Shown: positions 54,621 to 64,000 of the stretch, one piece after another
How the letters are laid out: each line of letters starts with the position of its first letter
Numbering within the stretch: the first letter of the stretch is position 1
Source of the DNA: Nitrospira sp. CR1.3
GTDB taxonomy: Bacteria; Nitrospirota; Nitrospiria; Nitrospirales; Nitrospiraceae
Reading direction: 5' to 3'
Length of the DNA: 64,000 nt
Assembly (NCBI GenBank): GCA_014055525.1
Contig: WIAH01000017.1
Location: forward strand, 1 to 64,000
Notes under the pieces: generated by a model
Told to the model about the DNA's origin: nothing
What the model saw: only the letters and a program-made list of their open reading frames with translations
Databases searched by the model: none
Translations under genes and position numbers: made by a program

Positions 54621-55391
54621 TCAAATTCCCGCGTACCATTCATACCCCTGGTCTTCCCAATACCCGCCTTTTCCGCCTCTAATGCCGGCGAGCGACTCCA
54701 CCAACTCGATCCGCTCCACGTACTTCGCCTGCTTATAGCCCAGCTGACGTTCAAACCGCAGACGGAGCGGCGCGCCGTGAGGGATGTCGAGCGGGTCGCC
54801 GTTCAACTCATAGGCCAGAATCGTTTGAGGATGGTAGAGATCTTGAACCGCCATGCTCTCATAATAGGCGATCCCTTCGTCGTCCACATCGGCACAATGG
54901 AAGACAGCATACTTGGCGTTGGGTAACGGCTGAACTTTGTGCATGAGATCCCCAAGCGGCACGCCGGTCCACTTGCCGATGGCGCTCCATCCTTCCACAC
55001 AGTCGTGCCGGGTAATCTGTGTTCGCGCCGGCATCTCTTTTAGCGCTGCAAGGGAGAAGCTGATCGGCGTTCGGACCAGACCGTCGATCTTCACTTCCCA
55101 GGCCTCAAAATTTTGTCCCGCCCTTTCGACGTAGGTTTGAGTGCTTGGATCGGTATTCCCGTTCGCGGGAAATATCGAAGAGATGTCCGCCTCACTGTAT
55201 TCCTTTGCCAGAGCGGTGGTCGGCGTGATCGCTCGCTGTACCAAATCGGTCAGTTTCTCTGCCTTGTTCAGAATCCCGGGGAACCAGCTGCTCTGCGTAA
55301 GGTTGTCGCAGCCGGCGAGTGCAACAAGACTTGCGGCGCCCAGGGTACCCTTGAGGAATTGTCGGCGTTTCATCGCTCGTTCATGCTTCAT
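54621..55391 (-). CDS. Molybdopterin-dependent oxidoreductase (sulfite oxidase/MsrP fold), Tat-exported
   Basis: The 256-residue protein has a twin-arginine-like signal MKRRQFLKGTLG with AGC, and a sulfite oxidase fold. The predicted Mo-ligand Cys is in RHDCVEGWSAIGKWTGVPL, with LEMPA-type and HGAPLRLRFERQLGYKQAKYV motifs. A short N-terminal extension precedes the domain. It should act in the periplasm with the cytochrome b encoded immediately upstream, with which it overlaps by four bases. Substrate unknown. Confidence 0.88.
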   Translation of the reverse strand: MKHERAMKRRQFLKGTLGAASLVALAGCDNLTQSSWFPGILNKAEKLTDLVQRAITPTTALAKEYSEADISSIFPANGNTDPSTQTYVERAGQNFEAWEVKIDGLVRTPISFSLAALKEMPARTQITRHDCVEGWSAIGKWTGVPLGDLMHKVQPLPNAKYAVFHCADVDDEGIAYYESMAVQDLYHPQTILAYELNGDPLDIPHGAPLRLRFERQLGYKQAKYVERIELVESLAGIRGGKGGYWEDQGYEWYAGI

Positions 55392-56302
55392 GATTGCACT
55401 CCTTCATGCTCATGCTTGACGATAAACCACCCCGTGACCATCGATCGCATGTTGTTGAAGAACCCTGTCAGGATGACTTGAGACAGGTGGATGACTATGA
55501 AACCGACGAAAGAAAAGCAGGCAATGAAGTGAATTGTCCGCGCCGCCTGCCTACCGCCGAAGATGGTCAGGAGCCAGGGGAAGGCCGTGTCGATCGTTGG
55601 CGACATGGTCAGGCCGGTCAGCACGATCAGCGGCGCCAGTCCGAAGATCACGCCCAGATACGCGATCTTTTGCAACACATTGTAACGCTTCGCCTCCTCG
55701 CCTTTCGGGTGATGCAGCGCAATGTGATCCTTCACGGCCTGACCGATCTGCCGCAGATCCCGCCCAGTCGGCAACAAGTCTCGTTTGACGTGGCGACTGA
55801 TGACGGCATAGGCCGCGAAGAGCAGGCCGTTGATCACGAAGACCCAGGCGAAAAAAAGATGCCACTGTCGCCCCATTGCGAGCCACCTGGTGCTCGGCAC
55901 CGTGGCCCAGGCGGGAAACGCCCGACCGCTGTTGTTCGAATAGCCGAGGACTCCAGTGGTGTCGAATTGATGGCCCAGGATCGTGGTGATGCCTTTGACC
56001 TCTCCGCTTTCAGTCCTCATCGGACGGATCGACAGCAGGGGCTTGTCGCGGTCCGAACGGTCGCCCCAATAGAGCGCCGGGTGCGCGTTGAATATCTGCA
56101 GCCCGCTCATGATGAGGATGAAGAGACAAGGGACATTGAGCCAATGGCTGATCCGTACCGGTAACCGGTGGCGGTAGATGCGTTCGACCCTGACAGCGGA
56201 GGGGATTGCCGGCGACGCTTCTTGCCTCATGGAAACTGGAGCAGCCATTGACCCGATCTTGCCTTCTGTCACGTGGTCTGGAGCTTCGAGTTGTTGGAGC
56301 AT
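55388..56302 (-). CDS. Cytochrome b561-type membrane protein
   Basis: The 304-residue protein has four or more membrane helices with His in likely heme positions: LPVRISHWLNVPCLFILIMSG, GRQWHLFFAWVFVINGLLF, and ARTIHFIACFSFVGFIVIHLSQV. This is the Ni-Fe hydrogenase/formate dehydrogenase type cytochrome b fold. AAGGAG precedes the ATG. It probably moves electrons between the quinone pool and the molybdenum protein encoded next. It is not a YedZ-type ferric reductase fold. Confidence 0.88.
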   Translation of the reverse strand: MLQQLEAPDHVTEGKIGSMAAPVSMRQEASPAIPSAVRVERIYRHRLPVRISHWLNVPCLFILIMSGLQIFNAHPALYWGDRSDRDKPLLSIRPMRTESGEVKGITTILGHQFDTTGVLGYSNNSGRAFPAWATVPSTRWLAMGRQWHLFFAWVFVINGLLFAAYAVISRHVKRDLLPTGRDLRQIGQAVKDHIALHHPKGEEAKRYNVLQKIAYLGVIFGLAPLIVLTGLTMSPTIDTAFPWLLTIFGGRQAARTIHFIACFSFVGFIVIHLSQVILTGFFNNMRSMVTGWFIVKHEHEGVQS

Positions 56303-56402
56303 GGCGGTTCTCCTTCTGTCGAATGGCCTGGATCAACGCCCTCTACGTTCAATGAGAATCAGTCGGCTCTTGACGCGGTTTCTTACGAACGAAGAAGGAG
56401 GC

Positions 56403-56864
56403 CTAGTGGGTGACGTGATTGGTCTTGCCGACCTCAGGCCAATTTTGGTCGGCCTTCTTGATGTAGCCTTGGATATCCAGGAGCCAGAGGGCGCGGACGG
56501 TGCCATTGTAATTGAGGTACAGCTTATCCCCCACTACGGTAAAGGCTGCGGGATCGATGGCAGCTTTGTACCCCTTCGCCATGCCGAAGGCGCAGAACCC
56601 GCGGTACTGAGGGGAGAATTTCTCAGGGGCGGCAAGGAACTTTTCACGATTCGCGGCTGATGAGAACAGAAATACCGAGCCGAGGTGATCGGCTCGGTAT
56701 TGATTCGATCCCCGCACCGGTTTCATCTCCGTGAAATAGGCGACTGGATCATAGCCGTCGATTGCAATGCCGTTCCTCTCAAAGTACGCACCGGCAAAAG
56801 ATGCTGTGCCGGAACACATGGCCCACAGCACCATGCCGCACAGGATCAGCTGAACTGTTTTCAT
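56403..56864 (-). CDS. YHS-domain secreted protein
   Basis: The 153-residue protein has a signal peptide ending TASFAGA and a YHS-type domain: IAIDGYDPVAYFTEMKPVRG, then FLFSSAANREKFLAAPEKFSPQYRGFCAFGMAKG. These small domains bind metals in some proteins. The ATG at 56864 follows the stop of the dehydrogenase gene at once, so they are co-transcribed. Its role next to the molybdenum protein is unknown. Confidence 0.88.
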   Translation of the reverse strand: MKTVQLILCGMVLWAMCSGTASFAGAYFERNGIAIDGYDPVAYFTEMKPVRGSNQYRADHLGSVFLFSSAANREKFLAAPEKFSPQYRGFCAFGMAKGYKAAIDPAAFTVVGDKLYLNYNGTVRALWLLDIQGYIKKADQNWPEVGKTNHVTH

Positions 56865-56865
56865 C

Positions 56866-57981
56866 TCAGCTATTTTCTCTATCGTACGCGACATTCACAT
56901 ACACCTTGATCGCGCTCTTGTCTGTCGTCAGCGTCGACATCATCGATTGATAATTTTCCAGCCCCGTGACCGGATGGGTGAGCAGTTTGGAGAGCCAGCC
57001 GGGAAACTCCAGTTCAGCCCGCGCGAAGTCATACACCCCGGCCTCGAAGTACTCGCGGTTGGCGTTGACCGTCCCGACGACGAGCTTGTTCCCCAACACG
57101 AAATCCAGATTGATCTTGTCGGCGGGCACGGCATGCTGCCGGTTCCCGCCGGTCACGCTGGCCAGAATCAACACACCGTTCTTGCCTAGGCTTTCCATCG
57201 CTTCGAACGCCACAGGAGAATATCCGGTCGCTTCGAACATGAGGTCGAAGGGACCATAGCGTTTCGCAGCCTCACGGATGGTCAGATCGTCCGTCGAGAT
57301 GTAGCGAACACCCAGTTGCTCCAAGAGATCGAGGTTGCGCGACGACCCGGTCTGCTTGCCGAAGCTCGTGACCTCCAGTCCTCTCATCTTCAGCGACAGG
57401 GCGGCCAGGAGGCCGACTGTGCCGGCTCCGAGCACTGCGGCTTTCTTCGGACGCCAGATCTTGAATCGCCGCTGAGCTTCGTACGCTTGAATGATGCCTT
57501 TCTCAATGATAGAGGTCGGTTCGAGAAGGATTGCCACATGCTTCAGACCTCGGGGAATCTTCACCAGGTATTCCGGATCCTCCGTAAACAACTCGGTCAA
57601 ATAGCCGTGGCGAAGATTGATGCCACGCTCGTAGTAGGTGTCTTCCAACGTCATGTCGTACTGGCCGACCTGGTCGTAGAAGCTCCCACCGGGACGCCGC
57701 ACCGTCGGTACGACGTAGTCGCCGGGCCTCAATTCCGTCACGTTCGACCCGACTTCGAGCACTTGGCCGAAACATTCATGGCCGATCACGAGATAGTCGT
57801 ACCCCGGAGGCGCCTGCCCGTACTCCGCGGCGTTAATCTCCTTGTCCGTGCCGTCGAGGCCCACACGCAGGACCCGAACGAGCACCCCGCGGCCGTTCGG
57901 GATTTCGTAGACGGAGGGTTTCGGCAAATCGGCGAGATGGATGGAATTGGGCTTCCCCGGAAGTACGGCCACCGCTTTCAT
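56866..57981 (-). CDS. Glucose 1-dehydrogenase-like MDR oxidoreductase
   Basis: The 371-residue protein has a GroES-like N-terminal domain with GHECFGQVLEVGSNV and DYVVPTVRRPGG, and a Rossmann domain with AVLGAGTVGLLAALSLK and LEVTSFGKQTGSSRNLDLL. Length and motifs match the glucose 1-dehydrogenase group of zinc-containing medium-chain dehydrogenases. AAGGAGG precedes the ATG. It is cytosolic and would reduce NAD(P)+ with a sugar; the substrate is inferred from the family. Confidence 0.86.
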   Translation of the reverse strand: MKAVAVLPGKPNSIHLADLPKPSVYEIPNGRGVLVRVLRVGLDGTDKEINAAEYGQAPPGYDYLVIGHECFGQVLEVGSNVTELRPGDYVVPTVRRPGGSFYDQVGQYDMTLEDTYYERGINLRHGYLTELFTEDPEYLVKIPRGLKHVAILLEPTSIIEKGIIQAYEAQRRFKIWRPKKAAVLGAGTVGLLAALSLKMRGLEVTSFGKQTGSSRNLDLLEQLGVRYISTDDLTIREAAKRYGPFDLMFEATGYSPVAFEAMESLGKNGVLILASVTGGNRQHAVPADKINLDFVLGNKLVVGTVNANREYFEAGVYDFARAELEFPGWLSKLLTHPVTGLENYQSMMSTLTTDKSAIKVYVNVAYDRENS

Positions 57982-58083
57982 CGTCGCCCTCCTTCACGTT
58001 CGTCATCTCCGACCTACGTCTGCGGAGACATCTGGTCGTAGGTCGAGGAAGGAGGACAAATCTTACGGAGGGGAGGCCGCTAA

Positions 58084-59121
58084 TCAGTTCGCGTCGAGTC
58101 GGACTTTGCCTCGGAAGGCACGATGCGCGCAAATCTGATAGGCCAACAGGAGAAAAAAGCCGACAACGAACCAGGCAAGGCCCGCCGCCAGCCCGTAGGA
58201 ATCGGTCGCGGCGTTGAAGGCGGTGAGGCTGAGTGCGGGATTGGTCGATGACATCAGAAGATGCGGATACATGCCGCAGGCGACGCTGGCGAGCATTGTC
58301 AGAATGAACAGACTGGAAGCAAGAAACGCCGCCATGTCCCGTTGCCTGCTGCGGAAATACAGAGTGGCGCCGAGCATCAACGAACCGGTCAGCGGCAGGA
58401 GATATTCGAGCGGGTGACCGGCGAAATTGAGACGAAGACTCGGCTGGACGACCGGCACTGCGAGGAGAGCCAGGATCGTCAAGCCAGCCGCGGACCATCC
58501 CGCGAAACGGCCCGCGAGATCCACCCGCCGGTATAGGTCCCCCTCCGTTTTCATCGCCAGGTAGTTCGCACCATGCAGCGCAAGGATCGACGCGCTGGTC
58601 AGTCCCATCAGGACGGTGAACCAATCCAGAATGCCAGGTTCAGGGCCCGGCTGAAAATCTGTCCACAAGGCCACGAAAAAATACCCATCATGATTTAGCG
58701 GCACGCCGCGAATCAGATTGCCTAGAGCGGCGCCGAAAACCACGGCCAGAAGGAAACTGGCGCCGGAGAATGCGCCGTCCCACCAGCGGGTCCAGATCGG
58801 GTGGTCGAGATGCGAGCGCAGTTCGAGCGCCAGGCCGCGAAAGATCAGCAGCCACAGCACGAGGATCAGCGCCAGATAGAAGCCGCTGAAGCCCGCCGCA
58901 TAGACCTTTGGAAAGGCGAAGAAAAGCAGCCCGCCGCCCGCGATCAGCCAGACTTCGTTCCCGTTCCAGACCGGTCCGATGGACATAAGCGCCATTCGCC
59001 GGTCGGTCTCGCTTCGTGTCACAAAGGGATAGACGATGCCGACCCCGAAGTCGAAGCCGTCGAGGGCAACAAAGATCGCCAGCATTAAGGTAACGATCGC
59101 GTACCAGATGGTTTCCATCAT
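58084..59121 (-). CDS. cydB: Cytochrome bd quinol oxidase subunit II
   Basis: The 345-residue subunit has eight or nine membrane helices and the family motifs LDGFDFGVGIVYPFV, IGPVWNGNEVWLIAGGG and FSGFYLALILVLWLLIFRG. It forms the structural partner of CydA in the quinol oxidase, a high-affinity O2-reducing enzyme. Its ATG overlaps the cydA stop. No CydX-like small gene is visible downstream. Confidence 0.94.
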   Translation of the reverse strand: MMETIWYAIVTLMLAIFVALDGFDFGVGIVYPFVTRSETDRRMALMSIGPVWNGNEVWLIAGGGLLFFAFPKVYAAGFSGFYLALILVLWLLIFRGLALELRSHLDHPIWTRWWDGAFSGASFLLAVVFGAALGNLIRGVPLNHDGYFFVALWTDFQPGPEPGILDWFTVLMGLTSASILALHGANYLAMKTEGDLYRRVDLAGRFAGWSAAGLTILALLAVPVVQPSLRLNFAGHPLEYLLPLTGSLMLGATLYFRSRQRDMAAFLASSLFILTMLASVACGMYPHLLMSSTNPALSLTAFNAATDSYGLAAGLAWFVVGFFLLLAYQICAHRAFRGKVRLDAN

Positions 59122-60497
59122 GCGTTCCTGCCGGCCCAGGCCTGTTCTCTGGCCGGTTCAGCGTCGTGCTGATGTCCGTTCTCCTCTGGTCCATGCCGGA
59201 TCGTTTCCGCGATCATGAACAGAAACAGGATTCCCAGGAACAGGTAGAGCCCCAGAAAGCCGAGCAAGGTGAACAGTGCGTTCCCTGAATGGACCAGCGG
59301 CGATGTCCCCTCGGAGGTGCGCAAGAGTCCGTACACGAGCCAGGGCTGGCGACCGAGCTCGGCGGTCATCCACCCGGCCGTCGTGGCAATGTAGGGAAAC
59401 GGCGCGCTGAGCATCAGCAGCCAGAGCAGCCACTGTGTCGTGAAGAGGCGCCCGCGCCACAGCCAGAGCAACGCCAGTCCCATAACCGCGGACAGGATGG
59501 TCCCGAGCCCGGCCATCACGTGATAGGAATAATAGAGCAACGGCAGATTGTCGGGCCAATCTTCAGGCGGAAAGGCATCGAGTCCCTTCACCTGAGCGTA
59601 GAGCTCGTCGTAGACGAGGAAGCTCAGCGCCCTGGGAATTTCGATCGGGTTGTCGACCGTCATCGTCTCGAGGTTGGGTTGGCCGACCAAATACAGTCCG
59701 GCGCCGTGCTCGGTCTTAAAGAGCCCTTCAAACGCGGCCCCCTTTACCGGCTGATGTTCGAAGACCTGCCTGGCATTCCCGTGTCCTGTTGGAAAAATCA
59801 TCAGCGCGGTGGAGAGCGCGCCGGCCACAATCCCGGTTCGCAGGTACGTCTTCGCTTGGGCCGTATGCCGGCCGGAAAGAAGATAGAACGACCCGAGCGC
59901 CGCCATCACGAATGATCCGGTGACGACTGCAGCCGTCATGTTGTGCGCGTACTGCCAGAACAGCCAGGGATTGGTGAGCAAGGCCCAGAGACTGTCGACG
60001 AAGAGCCGCCCGTCGGGTGAGACGCGGTAGGCCACCGGATGCTGCATCCATGCGTTGGTGGCTAGAATGAAAAAGCCTGAAAGCCAGGAGCCGAGGAAGA
60101 GCATCAACGAGGCAAACCACTGGATCTTTCGGCTGAACCGCTGGTCCCCGAAAAGCAGCATGCCGAGGAAGGACGATTCCATGAAAAACGCGAACGTCCC
60201 TTCCATCGCCAGGGTTTGACCGATGACGCCCCCGGCAAAGTCGGAGAATTTCGCCCAATTGGTGCCGAATTGAAATTCCAGCGGAATGCCGGTGACAACG
60301 CCGAACGCGAAACTCAAAGCAAAAATCTTCGTCCAAAATCGCGCCGCTTCGTGCGCAGCCTCGTCGCCGGCCGCAAGCGCCCTGCTGCGTAGATACAACA
60401 ACAGCAGGGCCAATCCCATCGTCAGTTGCGGAAAAAGATAGTGGAACGTGGCGGTGAAGGCGAATTGCAAACGATCGTAGAGCAGGGCGCTGGTCAT
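59118..60497 (-). CDS. cydA: Cytochrome bd quinol oxidase subunit I
   Basis: The 459-residue subunit starts at the ATG 4 bases after GGGGG; a TTG three bases earlier is less likely. With this start the conserved heme ligand is His19 as in E. coli. Other motifs are QYAHNMTAAVVTG (second heme His), YSYHVMAGLG (Met ligand) and GRQPW. The Q-loop is of the short type. It oxidises quinol and reduces O2. It follows the anti-sigma gene on the same strand. Confidence 0.95.
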   Translation of the reverse strand: MTSALLYDRLQFAFTATFHYLFPQLTMGLALLLLYLRSRALAAGDEAAHEAARFWTKIFALSFAFGVVTGIPLEFQFGTNWAKFSDFAGGVIGQTLAMEGTFAFFMESSFLGMLLFGDQRFSRKIQWFASLMLFLGSWLSGFFILATNAWMQHPVAYRVSPDGRLFVDSLWALLTNPWLFWQYAHNMTAAVVTGSFVMAALGSFYLLSGRHTAQAKTYLRTGIVAGALSTALMIFPTGHGNARQVFEHQPVKGAAFEGLFKTEHGAGLYLVGQPNLETMTVDNPIEIPRALSFLVYDELYAQVKGLDAFPPEDWPDNLPLLYYSYHVMAGLGTILSAVMGLALLWLWRGRLFTTQWLLWLLMLSAPFPYIATTAGWMTAELGRQPWLVYGLLRTSEGTSPLVHSGNALFTLLGFLGLYLFLGILFLFMIAETIRHGPEENGHQHDAEPAREQAWAGRNA

Positions 60498-60600
60498 CAA
60501 TCCCCCGAGCCGACGGATCGGTTCAGAACGGAGCGCCGAACCCCGTCACGTTACGTCAGATGGGAACGGTAGGCCTTGCGGCGTGCCCGAGCGGTGTCGT

Positions 60601-60873
60601 TCACTTGGACGGAGCATAACAGCGGGCAAAGTGGCGGCGCAAGCGAAGACGATTGAAAGGCGAGGGCACAGGTCTCCGCGAGCGCGCAACAGTGTCTCGA
60701 ATCAGGATGATCTGGTTCACATAGGCGCGGCAATGGGCGCAGGAGGCCAAGTGCAATCCGACGCGAAACTTGATCGGGAGGGACGGAGCGTCGTCGAGAT
60801 ACTCGGAGGTCAGTCCCGCGACTTCGCGGCAGGTGAGTCCGCTCGCAATCCATTGTGACGGATGATCCTTCAT
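60601..60873 (-). CDS. Zinc-finger anti-sigma factor
   Basis: The 90-residue protein starts at the ATG after GGAGGCTCCACC. It has LTCREVAGLTSEYLDD (Cys15) and HLASCAHCRAYV with His41, Cys45 and Cys48, the HxxxCxxC motif of zinc-binding anti-sigma domains. There is no transmembrane segment, so it is a soluble type that may respond to redox or zinc state. It lies downstream of the ECF sigma gene and just ahead of cydA. Confidence 0.85.
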   Translation of the reverse strand: MKDHPSQWIASGLTCREVAGLTSEYLDDAPSLPIKFRVGLHLASCAHCRAYVNQIILIRDTVARSRRPVPSPFNRLRLRRHFARCYAPSK

Positions 60874-60941
60874 AGGTGGAGCCTCCGGTGCCAGCGCTTC
60901 CACCCTCTGAGTCTCCCAGTTCTGCAAATTCTTACAAAGGG

Positions 60942-61012
60942 AAGGCTGAGGCTAAGGTCGAAGGGAGGTCTCTGATCTTCGATGGCGAAACCTCAGCCTC
61001 AACCTTAGCCTA
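60942..61012 (-). repeat. Stop-anchored inverted repeat between sigma and anti-sigma genes
   Basis: Forward AAGGCTGAGGCTAAGGTCG (60942-60960) and CCTCAGCCTCAACCTTAGCC (60990-61009) are inverted copies of one 6-base-period unit. The right arm includes the sigma stop codon. The mRNA would carry a stem between the two genes. The same unit family appears near 54589. Confidence 0.6.
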
Positions 61013-61715
61013 GCGCGGTCTCGATCGCCGCGCGCACCTGCTCCCGCGCCCGATGGAGACGGACGTAGAGGTTGGTCTCCGTAATCTTCAAGATTTCGCA
61101 GACTTCCTTGGCATCTACTCCCTCCACATCGCGAAGGATCAGCACCCCCTTGAGGGTGGCCGGCAGCGCCTCGATCGCCTCGTTCATCGCGTTGACGGCC
61201 TGCTGCGATGCCAAGAGCCTTTCCGGAGTCCGATCGTCCCAGGGCTGGGGCGGGAACGCCCAGTGACCGGCCCACTCGCCGGACCGATGGAAACGAGCCG
61301 GGTCGACCGCTTCCTCGCTGTCGTCGTCGAAGGATTCAAAGGCCGAGAAGGTTGTGTGGCGTTTCTCACGCACGCCCCGGTCCTTCGCCTTATGAATCAG
61401 AATCCCGAAGATCCAGGTTCGGAGCGAGGAACGGCCCTCGAAGCGGTGCAGGCTTTCGATCACGGCCATCCAGGTATCCTGGACGACCTCCTCCGCAACC
61501 TCCCGATCAGCCACATATCCCATTGCCATTCGAATGAGCCCGCCATGGTGTCTGTCCACTAGCTCGTCGAAGGCACGTTCGTCACCCTGGCGGAGGCGCG
61601 CAAGCAGCTGCCGCTCGCCTTTCGTCAAGGCTTGACCCGTGACCGACGAGGCTGCGGGTCCCAAAGGTGGGTGTTGTTCGATCGACTGTGTTTGGGTGAG
61701 CGCCACTGAGTTCAT
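61005..61715 (-). CDS. ECF-family RNA polymerase sigma factor
   Basis: The 236-residue protein has region 2 (FDELVDRHHGGLIRMAMGYV, EEVVQDTWMAVIESLHRFEG, SLRTWIFGILIHKAKDRG) and region 4 (LPATLKGVLILRDVEGVDAKEV with ETNLYVRLHRAREQVR). An Asp/Glu-rich insert of about 50 residues separates them. GGAGGTCGATC precedes the ATG, which overlaps the STAS stop (ATGA). The longer frame to 61907 overlaps the STAS gene and is rejected. Confidence 0.93.
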   Translation of the reverse strand: MNSVALTQTQSIEQHPPLGPAASSVTGQALTKGERQLLARLRQGDERAFDELVDRHHGGLIRMAMGYVADREVAEEVVQDTWMAVIESLHRFEGRSSLRTWIFGILIHKAKDRGVREKRHTTFSAFESFDDDSEEAVDPARFHRSGEWAGHWAFPPQPWDDRTPERLLASQQAVNAMNEAIEALPATLKGVLILRDVEGVDAKEVCEILKITETNLYVRLHRAREQVRAAIETALG

Positions 61716-61981
61716 GATCGACCTCCGATGTCCATCAGATCCGTCATGTAGCCGGGAGCTTTGAGAATGGTGACTCGTTTGCGGGATAGCTGCTTCAAGA
61801 CCTCGACCCCTTGCCCATCGACGAAATCCACGCCGGCGCAGTTCAATTCGATCGATTTCAGATTTCGCAGTTCGGCGCGGCACTCCGCATCCAGAAGGTC
61901 TGCCCATTGACCGGTGATTTTCCCTTCTAGCGTGAAGACCACTCGGCTTCTGTCCATGTCTGTCTTTGTGATTTTCAGCAT
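61712..61981 (-). CDS. STAS-domain protein
   Basis: The 89-residue protein is a single STAS domain: FTLEGKITGQWADLLDAECRA and IELNCAGVDFVDGQGVEVLKQL. The Ser phosphorylated in anti-anti-sigma factors is Gly here (DFVDGQG), so switching by phosphorylation at that site is unlikely. The ATG at 61981 is chosen because a sigma54 promoter lies just before it and GGGAGACGGAGG precedes it; an upstream ATG at 62017 would fall inside the promoter. First gene of the operon. Confidence 0.88.
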   Translation of the reverse strand: MLKITKTDMDRSRVVFTLEGKITGQWADLLDAECRAELRNLKSIELNCAGVDFVDGQGVEVLKQLSRKRVTILKAPGYMTDLMDIGGRS

Positions 61982-62001
61982 CGCCTCCGTCTCCCTCGTT
62001 G

Positions 62002-62029
62002 CCCGGCTATTCAGCAACGCCTGTGCCGG
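62002..62029 (-). promoter_or_regulatory. Sigma54 (-24/-12) promoter of the STAS operon
   Basis: On the minus strand the sequence is CGGCACAGGCGTTGCTGA. The invariant GG (62027-62026) and GC (62015-62014) are 10 bases apart, as required for sigma54, and the flanks match GGCAC-N5-TTGC. The start site is predicted near 62002, about 20 bases before the ATG at 61981, leaving room for the ribosome binding site. Confidence 0.72.
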
Positions 62030-62140
62030 AACGCGAATGGAGGCGACGATCCTTCGCTAACCTGTTAAAAAATCGACGAGGTTTCGTGCTGCGGGCCTGA
62101 GATATCGGCGTGAGAGGGGCGAGAAATTTACGAGGTAATT

Positions 62141-62173
62141 CCCAAAATATTGGGGCTGTCCCAATTAGTTGGG
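62141..62173 (-). promoter_or_regulatory. Two tandem CCCAA-N4-TTGGG dyads, likely activator sites
   Basis: CCCAA-AATA-TTGGG (62141-62154) and CCCAA-TTAG-TTGGG (62160-62173) have identical half-sites and centres 19 bases apart. They lie about 145-165 bases upstream of the predicted sigma54 start site, the usual place for enhancer-type activator binding. Confidence 0.6.
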
Positions 62174-62193
62174 AAAGCAGCACAGGATTCGCG

Positions 62194-62288
62194 ACTCGTC
62201 ATGCGTCATCGGTCATTCGTCGGACGAGCATGGAGTATCGTGAGCGATCGCTTCTCTACGCTTGACCAATGACGATTGACGGTTGACG
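62194..62288 (-). repeat. Stop-anchored inverted repeat downstream of the sigma54 activator
   Basis: Forward ACTCGTCATGCGTCATCGGT (from 62194) and TTGACCAATGACGATTGACG (from 62262) are inverted copies of GTCAT/ATGAC-type units about 6-8 bases long. The array starts about 5 bases after the activator stop on the minus strand. It could form a long stem and may end the activator transcript. Confidence 0.55.
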
Positions 62289-62292
62289 GGCT

Positions 62293-64000
62293 TTAGGAGG
62301 GGCGTTCGATTCCGAGTTTCTTCATGCGCGCTTCGAGCGTGGTGGCATTGAGTCCCAGAATCCTGGCCGCACCCTTCTCGCCGCTGACCCGCCAATTGGT
62401 CTGGGTGAGGACGGCAAGGATATGGACCCGCTCCACTTCCTCCAACGTGGTGGCGGCTCCATTGACCGCCTGGGCCGCGCTCTTCGGCATCCAATCGGTG
62501 AGATCGAGCTCCGATCCCTGGCTCAAGATGACCGCGCGCTCGATGACGTGCTCGAGTTCGCGAATGTTCCCGGGCCAGAGATAGCCCTTCAGCATCTCCA
62601 TGGCCTTGGCCGAAACCGACTCGACCTTCTTGCCCATGGCAACGGAGTACTTCTTGACGAAGTACGAGACCAGCAGGGGGATATCCTGTTGCCGTTCGCG
62701 CAGGGCCGGCAGCGCAATCGGAAACACCTTGAGGCGGTAGTAGAGGTCGGATCGGAACCGTCCCTCACGGACCTCTTTGTCGAGATCCCGGTTCGTGGCG
62801 GCCACCACGCGGGCATTGACTTTGATCGTCCTCGTGCTGCCGAGCCGTTCGAACTCGCCTTCTTGCAGCACCCGCAGCAGCTTCGTCTGCAGCTCCAGCG
62901 GAATTTCGCCGACCTCGTCGAGAAAGATCGTCGCCCTGTCCGCCAGCTCAAACCGGCCGATCTTGCGCGCCAGCGCACCGGTGAAGGCGCCCTTCTCATG
63001 CCCGAACAACTCGCTTTCGATCAAGCCGGCGGGAATCGCCGCGCAATTGACCTTGACCAGCACCCCGTCCTTGCGGCTGCTCAAATGGTGGATCGCGCGG
63101 GCGATCAATTCCTTGCCGGTTCCCGTTTCGCCGGTCACCAGCACCGTCGCATCGGTCGCCGCGACTTTCTCGATCGATTGGAGCACCTTCTTGATCGCCG
63201 TCGAGACGCCGATGATTTCCTCGAAGTTGTGCGCCGTCTTGATCTCTTCGCGGAGATAGACATTGGCCGCCTCCAGCCGGGCCTTCTCCTGCTCCATCAG
63301 CACTTTATCGGTGATGTCGAGAAACATCGTGCGCGTGTAGGTCCCGCTCGGATCCGGTCTCGACCACCATTGAATCCAGAGCGGCTTGCCGTTGTCTTTG
63401 CGCCGCAGTTCCAGCACCACCCCGCTCGCGTCGATCCCCTTGCCGATCGAATCAAACGCCTCCTTCAGGCGTCGTTGCGCATCCGGCGTGTCGGGAATGA
63501 ACGAGAATCCATAGGTGCCTGGCACCTGGTCCGGCGTGATGCCCAACGTCTTCAAGGCCGTCCGATTGGCGCGGATGAACTTCGAATCGAGTCCTTCGTT
63601 CACGTAGGCGATCGGCGCTTCGTCGAATAGATCACGCAACCGCTCCTCATTGTCCTTCAACATCGCTTCCATTTGCGTCCGCTCAAGCTCCGCGCCGGCG
63701 CGCGCACCGAAGATCTTGAAGACGGAGAGATCCAGCTGTTCGAGTTCCATCCGCTTGGTATCCATCACCGCCAAGTGTCCCAACACCTGCCCGCCGGCGC
63801 TCGTCACCGGAATGGCCAGATAGCTCTTCACCCCCAGCCCTTCCAGATCATCTTTGTGCAGGGGGAATTGCTCCGCCACCTTGTCCGCGCAGTGGTACAG
63901 CTCGCCGGCCAATACCTTCTCGCAGGGCGTATGCGCGATCGCGTACTCAAAATTGGCTTTGAAATGATCTCCCGCCCAGAAGGCCAAGGTGTGCACTTTG
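62293..64000 (-). CDS. Sigma54-dependent activator, GAF-PAS-AAA-HTH (partial, N-terminus off window)
   Basis: The visible 568 residues run from a GAF domain ([33 protein letters not shown]) through PAS ([20 protein letters not shown]), a linker, and the sigma54 AAA+ domain with Walker [25 protein letters not shown] and RSDLYYRL, to a Fis-type helix-turn-helix ([21 protein letters not shown]). There is no receiver domain in the visible part, so it probably senses a ligand or redox signal. The frame continues past the right edge with no start seen. Confidence 0.93.

What the first reader, a model, noticed from the sequence alone, without database searches (positions are those of the whole stretch)
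58084..64000. Sigma54 activator to STAS-ECF sigma-anti-sigma to cytochrome bd cascade
A GAF-PAS activator without a receiver domain, then a sigma54-controlled operon of a STAS protein (Ser site replaced by Gly), an ECF sigma and a soluble zinc anti-sigma, then cydAB, all on one strand. Placing an ECF sigma under sigma54 control with a STAS partner that cannot be phosphorylated at the usual site is unusual, and cyd genes are the natural output.
Basis: partly seen in the sequence, partly recalled or inferred. Interest (0 to 1): 0.7.

Follow-up and report, generated by a model that had tools for sequence, protein, structure and literature searches.

The report
Sigma54-switched ECF methionine-repair regulon in Nitrospira
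Nitrospira bacteria seem to carry a two-step genetic switch in which one specialised transcription factor turns on a second, which then turns on genes that repair oxidised methionine and, in this genome, probably an extra terminal oxidase.

Summary
In a Nitrospira genome (all genes on the minus strand) a GAF-GAF-PAS activator (EBP) precedes a -24/-12 promoter seen before STAS in 36 of 36 loci that have STAS; twin palindromes above it fit a pattern found at three places in the genome, two of them here. STAS and ECF overlap by 4 nt. I found a likely ECF promoter, TGTAAG-N16-(C/A)GACNNA: 65 exact copies on the operon strand of 41 loci, 0 on the other. It precedes the anti-sigma gene (29 of 32), a b561/MsrP-like pair (19 of 28), msrB (6 of 10 genomes) and msrA (2 of 10). 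So the conserved output is probably methionine-sulfoxide repair / oxidant defence. cydAB is variable cargo behind the anti-sigma gene (3 of 33 loci with that gene). STAS has no Ser at the usual site in 34 of 36, but in distant loci it goes with the EBP even where ECF or anti-sigma is absent, so a STAS/anti-sigma pair is not supported. It works like SigF/NrsF-MrpX-YedYZ plus a HrpL-style sigma54 layer: a new variant of known kinds. Everything is inferred from sequence.

The parts
62293..63999 (-). EBP: GAF-GAF-PAS-AAA+-Fis-HTH activator; continues beyond the window to C10:64737
62160..62173 (-). Upstream palindrome CCCAACTAATTGGG, candidate EBP site 1
   Evidence: the pattern occurs at 3 places in the 3.46-Mb genome, 2 of them here
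62141..62154 (-). Upstream palindrome CCCAATATTTTGGG, candidate EBP site 2 (19 bp from site 1)
62013..62028 (-). sigma54 -24/-12 promoter CGGCACAGGCGTTGCT
   Evidence: read; conserved
61712..61981 (-). STAS protein, 89 aa, D-G-Q-G in place of the Ser site
61005..61715 (-). ECF sigma factor, 236 aa, overlaps STAS by 4 nt (ATGA)
60908..60936 (-). ECF-type promoter TGTAAGAATTTGCAGAACTGGGAGACTCA before the anti-sigma gene
   Evidence: (score 25.9, best of the 64-kb window)
60601..60873 (-). Soluble zf-HC2 (HxxxCxxC) anti-sigma factor, 90 aa
59118..60497 (-). cydA, cytochrome bd subunit I
58084..59121 (-). cydB, cytochrome bd subunit II
58039..58067 (-). Weak ECF-type promoter before the dehydrogenase gene
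   Evidence: (14.1)
56866..57981 (-). Glucose-dehydrogenase-like medium-chain dehydrogenase (ADH)
56403..56894 (-). YHS-domain protein
56359..56387 (-). ECF-type promoter before cytochrome b561 (one mismatch to the strict pattern)
   Evidence: (19.2)
55388..56302 (-). Cytochrome b561-like membrane protein
54621..55391 (-). MsrP/YedY-like molybdopterin oxidoreductase
   Evidence: best PDB hit 1xdq

Best explanation
A two-stage sigma cascade. The dedicated GAF-GAF-PAS activator, when its sensor domains are switched (signal unknown), binds the twin palindromes and fires one sigma54 promoter, making STAS and ECF together from translationally coupled genes. The ECF then fires TGTAAG-N16-(C/A)GACNNA promoters for its own zinc anti-sigma (delayed negative feedback) with cydAB behind it in this genome, a dehydrogenase, a cytochrome b561/MsrP-like pair, MsrA, MsrB and further envelope genes. 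The purpose is repair of oxidised methionine and oxidant defence, plausibly against chlorite/hypochlorite, which a nitrite oxidiser can make for itself; cydAB adds a quinol oxidase. STAS is more likely a regulator of the activator (or a co-product of its promoter) than an anti-anti-sigma. Shown by sequence: gene order, both promoter motifs, their conservation and placement. Inferred: that EBP binds the palindromes, that this ECF reads the motif, the signal, read-through into cydAB, the STAS partner.
For: sigma54 site before STAS in 36 of 36 loci; palindrome pattern at 3 places genome-wide, 2 here, at least one copy upstream of STAS in 34 of 36. ECF motif: 65 on the operon strand, 0 on the other in 41 loci, four altered patterns 0-1; among genes whose start could be placed it precedes ASF in 29 of 32, b561 in 19 of 28, ADH 3 of 17, STAS 0 of 36, ECF 0 of 30. 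Weight matrix built without the window genome: the three best hits in 64 kb are the ASF, b561 and ADH promoters. Sites stand before msrB in 6 of 10 genomes, msrA in 2, a ~160-aa exported protein in 7 (families from one representative each). A Met-rich exported peptide gene stands just before b561 in 23 of 41 loci. Literature analogues: passages of PMC8315932 and PMC4623255.
Against: No transcript or binding data. In the window's own genome the motif is not enriched in number: 11 against 45 for the reversed control, 41 against 110 with one mismatch allowed; only its placement is telling. The Met-rich peptide has no site of score 14 or more directly in front in any of its 23 loci (other genes lie between), and it was not found in the window genome (one search had no positive control). 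The MoCo protein is below the NCBIfam MsrP cut-off and its partner is not called MsrQ. No ECF site of score 14 or more near the three chlorite-dismutase-family genes. cydA has no ECF site of its own in the window. The ADH site is weak.
Confidence: 0.65

Rival explanations
1. One reading: STAS frees the ECF by binding the zinc anti-sigma, and cydAB is the purpose of the system.
For: Gene order in the window; cydA also follows ASF in L147; an ECF-type site stands before cydA in L024 and L013; another quinol oxidase, AOX, stands after ASF in N. moscoviensis. STAS-ASF distance correlation 0.24 (Mantel p 0.006), 0.32 without four divergent loci.
Against: cydA next after ASF in 3 of 33 loci with ASF. 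EBP-STAS without an ECF match in 7 of 19 further loci; no zf-HC2 gene found in 7 of the 12 with ECF. ASF has a separate ECF-type promoter in 29 of 32 loci.
Confidence: 0.13
2. STAS is an anti-activator that binds the EBP and closes a negative loop on the sigma54 promoter, as HrpV does on HrpS (analogy recalled).
For: An EBP stands upstream of STAS in 17 of 19 further loci, 7 of them without an ECF match. Distance correlation STAS-EBP 0.61, AAA+/HTH part 0.82, with ECF and ASF held constant, 26 loci.
Against: The EBP sensor part shows no correlation (0.00), and without four divergent loci STAS-EBP falls to 0.14 (AAA+/HTH part 0.43), below STAS-ECF 0.44 and STAS-ASF 0.32. STAS and ECF are translationally coupled. 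One paper search listed no STAS-EBP pair among the 12 of 92 papers shown.
Confidence: 0.38
3. STAS binds the ECF itself, as an anti-sigma or stabiliser; ASF was added later.
For: 4-nt overlap of STAS and ECF; ECF loci without zf-HC2 still have STAS; STAS-ECF correlation 0.31 to 0.44.
Against: STAS also stands without an ECF match in 7 of 19 loci.
Confidence: 0.27
4. cydAB is transcribed by its own housekeeping promoter and is only a neighbour.
For: cydAB absent from most loci; no ECF site directly before cydA in the window.
Against: No sigma70-like promoter in 58000-62400 (0 found, 1.0 expected, a weak negative) and no terminator-like site in the ASF-cydA gap; same order in L147.
Confidence: 0.3

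Closest known systems
SigF/NrsF-MrpX-YedYZ of Azospira-type perchlorate islands and BcrS/AbcS-BcrXQP of Brucella (ECF16)
   Same: ECF/anti-sigma pair with a Met-rich peptide, a YedY/MsrP-type enzyme and membrane partner and, in some islands, msrA and msrB (passages of PMC4623255; abstract and passages of PMC8315932). -35 there TGTAAC in printed sites, here TGTAAG.
   Different: Here the anti-sigma is a soluble zinc protein, not the six-helix NrsF type; the ECF gene has a sigma54 promoter and no copy of the ECF motif; STAS present; -10 CGAC instead of CGAA; Met-rich peptide not found in the window genome.
HrpL of Pseudomonas syringae (ECF under sigma54)
   Same: An ECF sigma gene whose transcription depends on sigma54 (start of the abstract of PMC5263251, listing).
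   Different: HrpL serves type III secretion; STAS and zinc anti-sigma partners are not part of it (recalled).
SpoIIAA/RsbV-type STAS anti-anti-sigma
   Same: STAS family; the only anti-sigma antagonist among solved chains matched was TM1442, E 0.033.
   Different: No Ser at the usual site in 34 of 36; no GHKL kinase among the ten window proteins scanned.
Sigma SsdA/SipA of Actinoplanes
   Same: A STAS domain tied to a sigma factor, with an apparent role in oxidative stress responses (abstract and passages of PMC10733313).
   Different: There STAS is fused to a SigB/F/G-type sigma and meets an RsbW-like kinase domain.

Membership tests
sigma54-dependent promoter with bacterial enhancer-binding protein | GG-N10-GC -24/-12 element | tested here: met
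   36 of 36 loci with STAS
sigma54-dependent promoter with bacterial enhancer-binding protein | Upstream activator sites | tested here: inconclusive
   Palindromes present and conserved; binding by this EBP not testable
ECF sigma factor with ASD/zf-HC2 anti-sigma | Regions 2 and 4, plus neighbouring HxxxCxxC protein | tested here: met
   the zinc protein was not found in 7 of 12 distant ECF loci; inhibition not testable
SpoIIAA/RsbV anti-anti-sigma | Conserved phosphorylatable Ser/Thr | tested here: not met
   Ser in 2 of 36; by eye Thr in 1 of 19 further loci, L186
SpoIIAA/RsbV anti-anti-sigma | Partner GHKL kinase anti-sigma | tested here: inconclusive
   None among the 10 window proteins scanned; genome not searched
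ECF16 SigF/NrsF oxidant system | NrsF-type six-helix membrane anti-sigma | tested here: not met
   zf-HC2 instead; max KD-19 1.51 over 32
ECF16 SigF/NrsF oxidant system | Met-rich exported peptide in the regulon | tested here: inconclusive
   Gene in 23 of 41 loci, no ECF site directly before it; not found in the window genome (no positive control)
ECF16 SigF/NrsF oxidant system | MsrP/YedY with membrane partner | tested here: inconclusive
   1xdq best in PDB (E 3e-13; that 1xdq is YedY is recalled) but below the NCBIfam cut-off; partner is b561-like
ECF16 SigF/NrsF oxidant system | Induction by hypochlorite/chlorite | not testable with these tools
   Needs an experiment

The most novel reading that the evidence does not exclude
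A class of STAS proteins in the order of Nitrospira is a dedicated partner of GAF/PAS enhancer-binding proteins rather than of anti-sigma factors. This EBP-STAS module has captured an ECF sigma and then a zinc anti-sigma, giving a sigma54-to-ECF cascade whose ECF also drives the operon that leads into its own activator gene (GMC oxidoreductase...EBP), so a positive loop through the EBP is set against a delayed negative loop through the anti-sigma, controlling self-made chlorine-oxidant damage in nitrite oxidisers.
Probability: 0.28. Interest if true: 0.8.

Novelty: new variant of a known kind. Interest (0 to 1): 0.6.

Why it matters
It gives Nitrospira, widespread nitrite oxidisers, a predicted oxidant-defence regulon with a precise promoter motif that can be tested in any strain that carries it. 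It adds a second kind of sigma54-to-ECF cascade beside HrpL and would explain how these bacteria cope with methionine oxidation, including from chlorite that nitrite oxidoreductase forms from chlorate (passages of PMC10504367). If STAS acts on the EBP, it would be a partner type for enhancer-binding proteins that the listings of my searches did not show.

Tried and rejected
Rejected: cydAB as the conserved output (next gene after ASF in 3 of 33 loci with ASF). Rejected: ECF autoregulation through this motif (0 of 36 STAS and 0 of 30 ECF upstream regions). Not supported: chlorite dismutase in the regulon (no site of score 14 or more in the three stretches taken). Inconclusive: co-evolution of STAS. 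Inconclusive: redox cysteines in the EBP sensors; the TPCE cysteines are kept in 27 of 27 and 30 of 30 rows, but that motif is common in GAF domains (recalled). Led nowhere: AlphaFold of STAS (queue full, so no fold search); paper searches for a STAS-ECF pair or for Nitrospira ECF factors listed none on this system, in an open-licence library and in part from capped lists. Left out of the proposed regulon: window-genome sites at C30:6708 (no convincing gene) and C34:64239 (near the start of a peroxiredoxin-like gene, named by eye). Not followed: the N. moscoviensis site before another EBP. Rows dropped: L001-L009 from the synteny tables; only the 26 loci having all four proteins; only genes whose start could be placed.
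Full report
Setting. The window is contig C10 of a 3.46-Mb genome, 92.65% complete. Of 40 loci returned by an ECF search of named genomes, 38 titles name Nitrospira or Nitrospiraceae and two name uncultured Nitrosospira isolates, so this is a Nitrospira. That scan finds close relatives only. With the window locus (L050) this gives the 41 loci used below.

Genes. On the minus strand: activator, STAS, ECF, zf-HC2 anti-sigma (ASF), cydA, cydB, a glucose-dehydrogenase-like protein (ADH), a YHS protein, a b561-like cytochrome and a molybdopterin enzyme. The activator runs past the window edge; in full it is 814 aa. STAS and ECF overlap by 4 nt. ASF begins 131 nt after ECF, cydA 103 nt after ASF.

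sigma54 step. A -24/-12 element stands before STAS in all 35 other loci with STAS (9 to 11 of 11 consensus positions, starting 47 to 63 bp upstream) and in the window. Two palindromes CCCAA-N4-TTGGG, 19 bp apart, lie 113-145 bp above it in the window. The strict scan (spacer 3-9) found at least one in 34 of 36 STAS loci; none in L037, and none in L048, where the locus holds only 123 bp upstream of STAS; L041 has a shorter spacer. In the whole genome the N4 pattern occurs at three places, two of them here, so the activator looks dedicated to this promoter.

ECF step. A count of two-part words upstream of the neighbouring genes gave GTAAG-N16-CGAC. The 57 sites then collected share a further A three bases after the GAC in 54, which was not asked for. 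Exact TGTAAG-N16-MGAC-NNA: 65 on the operon strand and 0 on the other over 41 loci, four altered patterns 0 to 1. Among genes whose start could be placed, within 220 bp: ASF 29 of 32 (at -55 to -66), b561 19 of 28, ADH 3 of 17, YHS 2 of 12, cydA 1 of 4, cydB 0 of 4, MoCo 0 of 24, STAS 0 of 36, ECF 0 of 30. A weight matrix made without the window genome picks as its three best hits in 64 kb the ASF, b561 and ADH promoters (Markov expectation 0.6 hits of score 13 or more). Over the 41 loci scores of 15 or more number 88 on the operon strand and 3 on the other. In the whole own genome the exact pattern has 8 places, four of them on the same strand within C10:60.9-76.1 kb. Against this, the pattern is not enriched in number in that genome (11 against 45 for the reversed looser form; 41 against 110 with one mismatch). 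In nine other genomes, all chosen because they carry the locus, the counts were 54 against 17 for the reversed control (rows summed).

Regulon. Of 51 sites with a recorded downstream reading frame in these ten genomes, mostly outside the ECF block, 27 stand before six recurrent families: msrB in 6 genomes, msrA in 2 (the window genome has both, C26:34107 and C35:15008), an exported ~160-aa protein without Pfam family in 7, a TVP38-like membrane protein (named by eye) in 5, a lipoprotein-like protein in 4, a methyltransferase-like protein (by eye) in 3. The other 24 stand before ASF or b561 copies, other genes or no convincing gene, and a few sites lie inside longer frames. Pfam confirmed MsrB and MsrA from one representative each, and an alternative oxidase after ASF in N. 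moscoviensis. A Lys/Met-rich exported peptide gene stands just before b561 in 23 of 41 loci, not in the window locus. No site of score 14 or more lies directly before it; the nearest are 179 to 6354 nt upstream with another gene between, so its control by the ECF would have to be by read-through. The molybdopterin enzyme is nearest to 1xdq in the PDB (labelled bacterial sulfite oxidase, E. coli YedY/MsrP by recall), though below the NCBIfam MsrP cut-off. The set resembles the hypochlorite regulons of Azospira-type islands and Brucella. That the oxidant here is chlorite/hypochlorite is inference: nitrite oxidoreductase forms chlorite from chlorate, chlorite dismutase is frequent in Nitrospirae, and this genome has three family members, none with an ECF site in the stretches taken.

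cydAB. cydA is the next gene after ASF in 3 of 33 loci with ASF (window, L013, L041) and lies 5 kb away in L024; it also follows ASF in L147, a same-genus genome, with a site of score 28.9 before ASF. L024 and L013 have an ECF-type site before cydA (77 and 243 nt). In the window no site precedes cydA, but no terminator-like or sigma70-like element was found in the gap, so read-through from the ECF-type ASF promoter is the simplest reading. In N. moscoviensis both cydAB copies are weakly expressed on nitrite (passages of PMC6606698).

STAS. The Ser58 position is not Ser in 34 of 36. A profile search found the protein in 32 of 295 genomes of the phylum (E 1e-12) and 65 of 234 of the order (E 1e-8). 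In 19 further loci, an EBP match stands upstream in 17 (L185 has none, L187 is cut by its contig end); 12 have an ECF match after STAS and 7 have none in the stretch. Of the 12, five have a zf-HC2 gene and seven show none within 1.5 kb, one of these (L179) with only about 400 bp left on its contig. In three of the five (L183, L184, L187) the zinc gene follows ECF closely with no ECF site found. This suggests a stepwise build: EBP-STAS, then ECF, then ASF, then a separate ECF promoter for ASF. Hence STAS most likely serves the EBP or its promoter. The distance-correlation test is ambiguous: STAS-EBP 0.61 (AAA+/HTH part 0.82, sensor part 0.00), STAS-ECF 0.31, STAS-ASF 0.24, ASF-ECF 0.52 in 26 loci; without four divergent loci STAS-EBP is 0.14, STAS-ECF 0.44, STAS-ASF 0.32.

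Feedback. In the window genome an ECF-type site (C10:69578, score 20.8) lies at the start of the GMC oxidoreductase gene, followed on the same strand by an NDH-2-like, a VOC-like and a TVP38-like gene (named by eye) and then the EBP. If co-transcribed, ECF raises its own activator. This is inference.

Verdict. Observation confirmed; interpretation partly supported; a new variant of known kinds, built from a HrpL-like sigma54-to-ECF step and a SigF-like oxidant regulon with a different anti-sigma and an odd STAS.

Noticed in passing
window 60946-61010: Imperfect inverted repeat of GGCTAAGGTTGAGGCTGAGG type (seen by eye) between ECF and the anti-sigma gene; a 22-bp piece of the 83-bp stretch recurs at C27:136739.
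   Followed up: partly
L092 (C10:69700-87714): Oxidative-looking island upstream: LysR-family regulator and a di-haem cytochrome c peroxidase on opposite strands, lipoprotein-like, aquaporin-like, GlcG/HbpS-like and SMP-30-like genes, with three ECF-type sites; names without Pfam are by eye.
   Followed up: partly
L109 (G001, N. moscoviensis): An alternative oxidase gene stands where the window has cydAB, after the anti-sigma gene.
   Followed up: partly
G001:C1:1558527-1558555: An exact ECF-type site lies 208 nt before another EBP-like gene in N. moscoviensis, hinting at a further cascade.
   Followed up: no
G000:C35:94158-95354: A second ECF homologue (35% identity) next to a weak STAS-like match (E 5e-4) on the other strand, with a one-mismatch copy of the ECF motif at C35:94755-94783 just upstream of that ECF.
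   Followed up: no
L181, L182, L175: EBP-STAS pairs stand before RND-efflux-like and pyruvate-dehydrogenase-like genes (by eye), so the EBP-STAS module may serve other outputs.
   Followed up: partly
L039, L040, L046: ECF homologues without EBP or STAS match; in L039/L040 after a Met-rich lipoprotein-like gene, in L039/L046 near a two-component pair.
   Followed up: no
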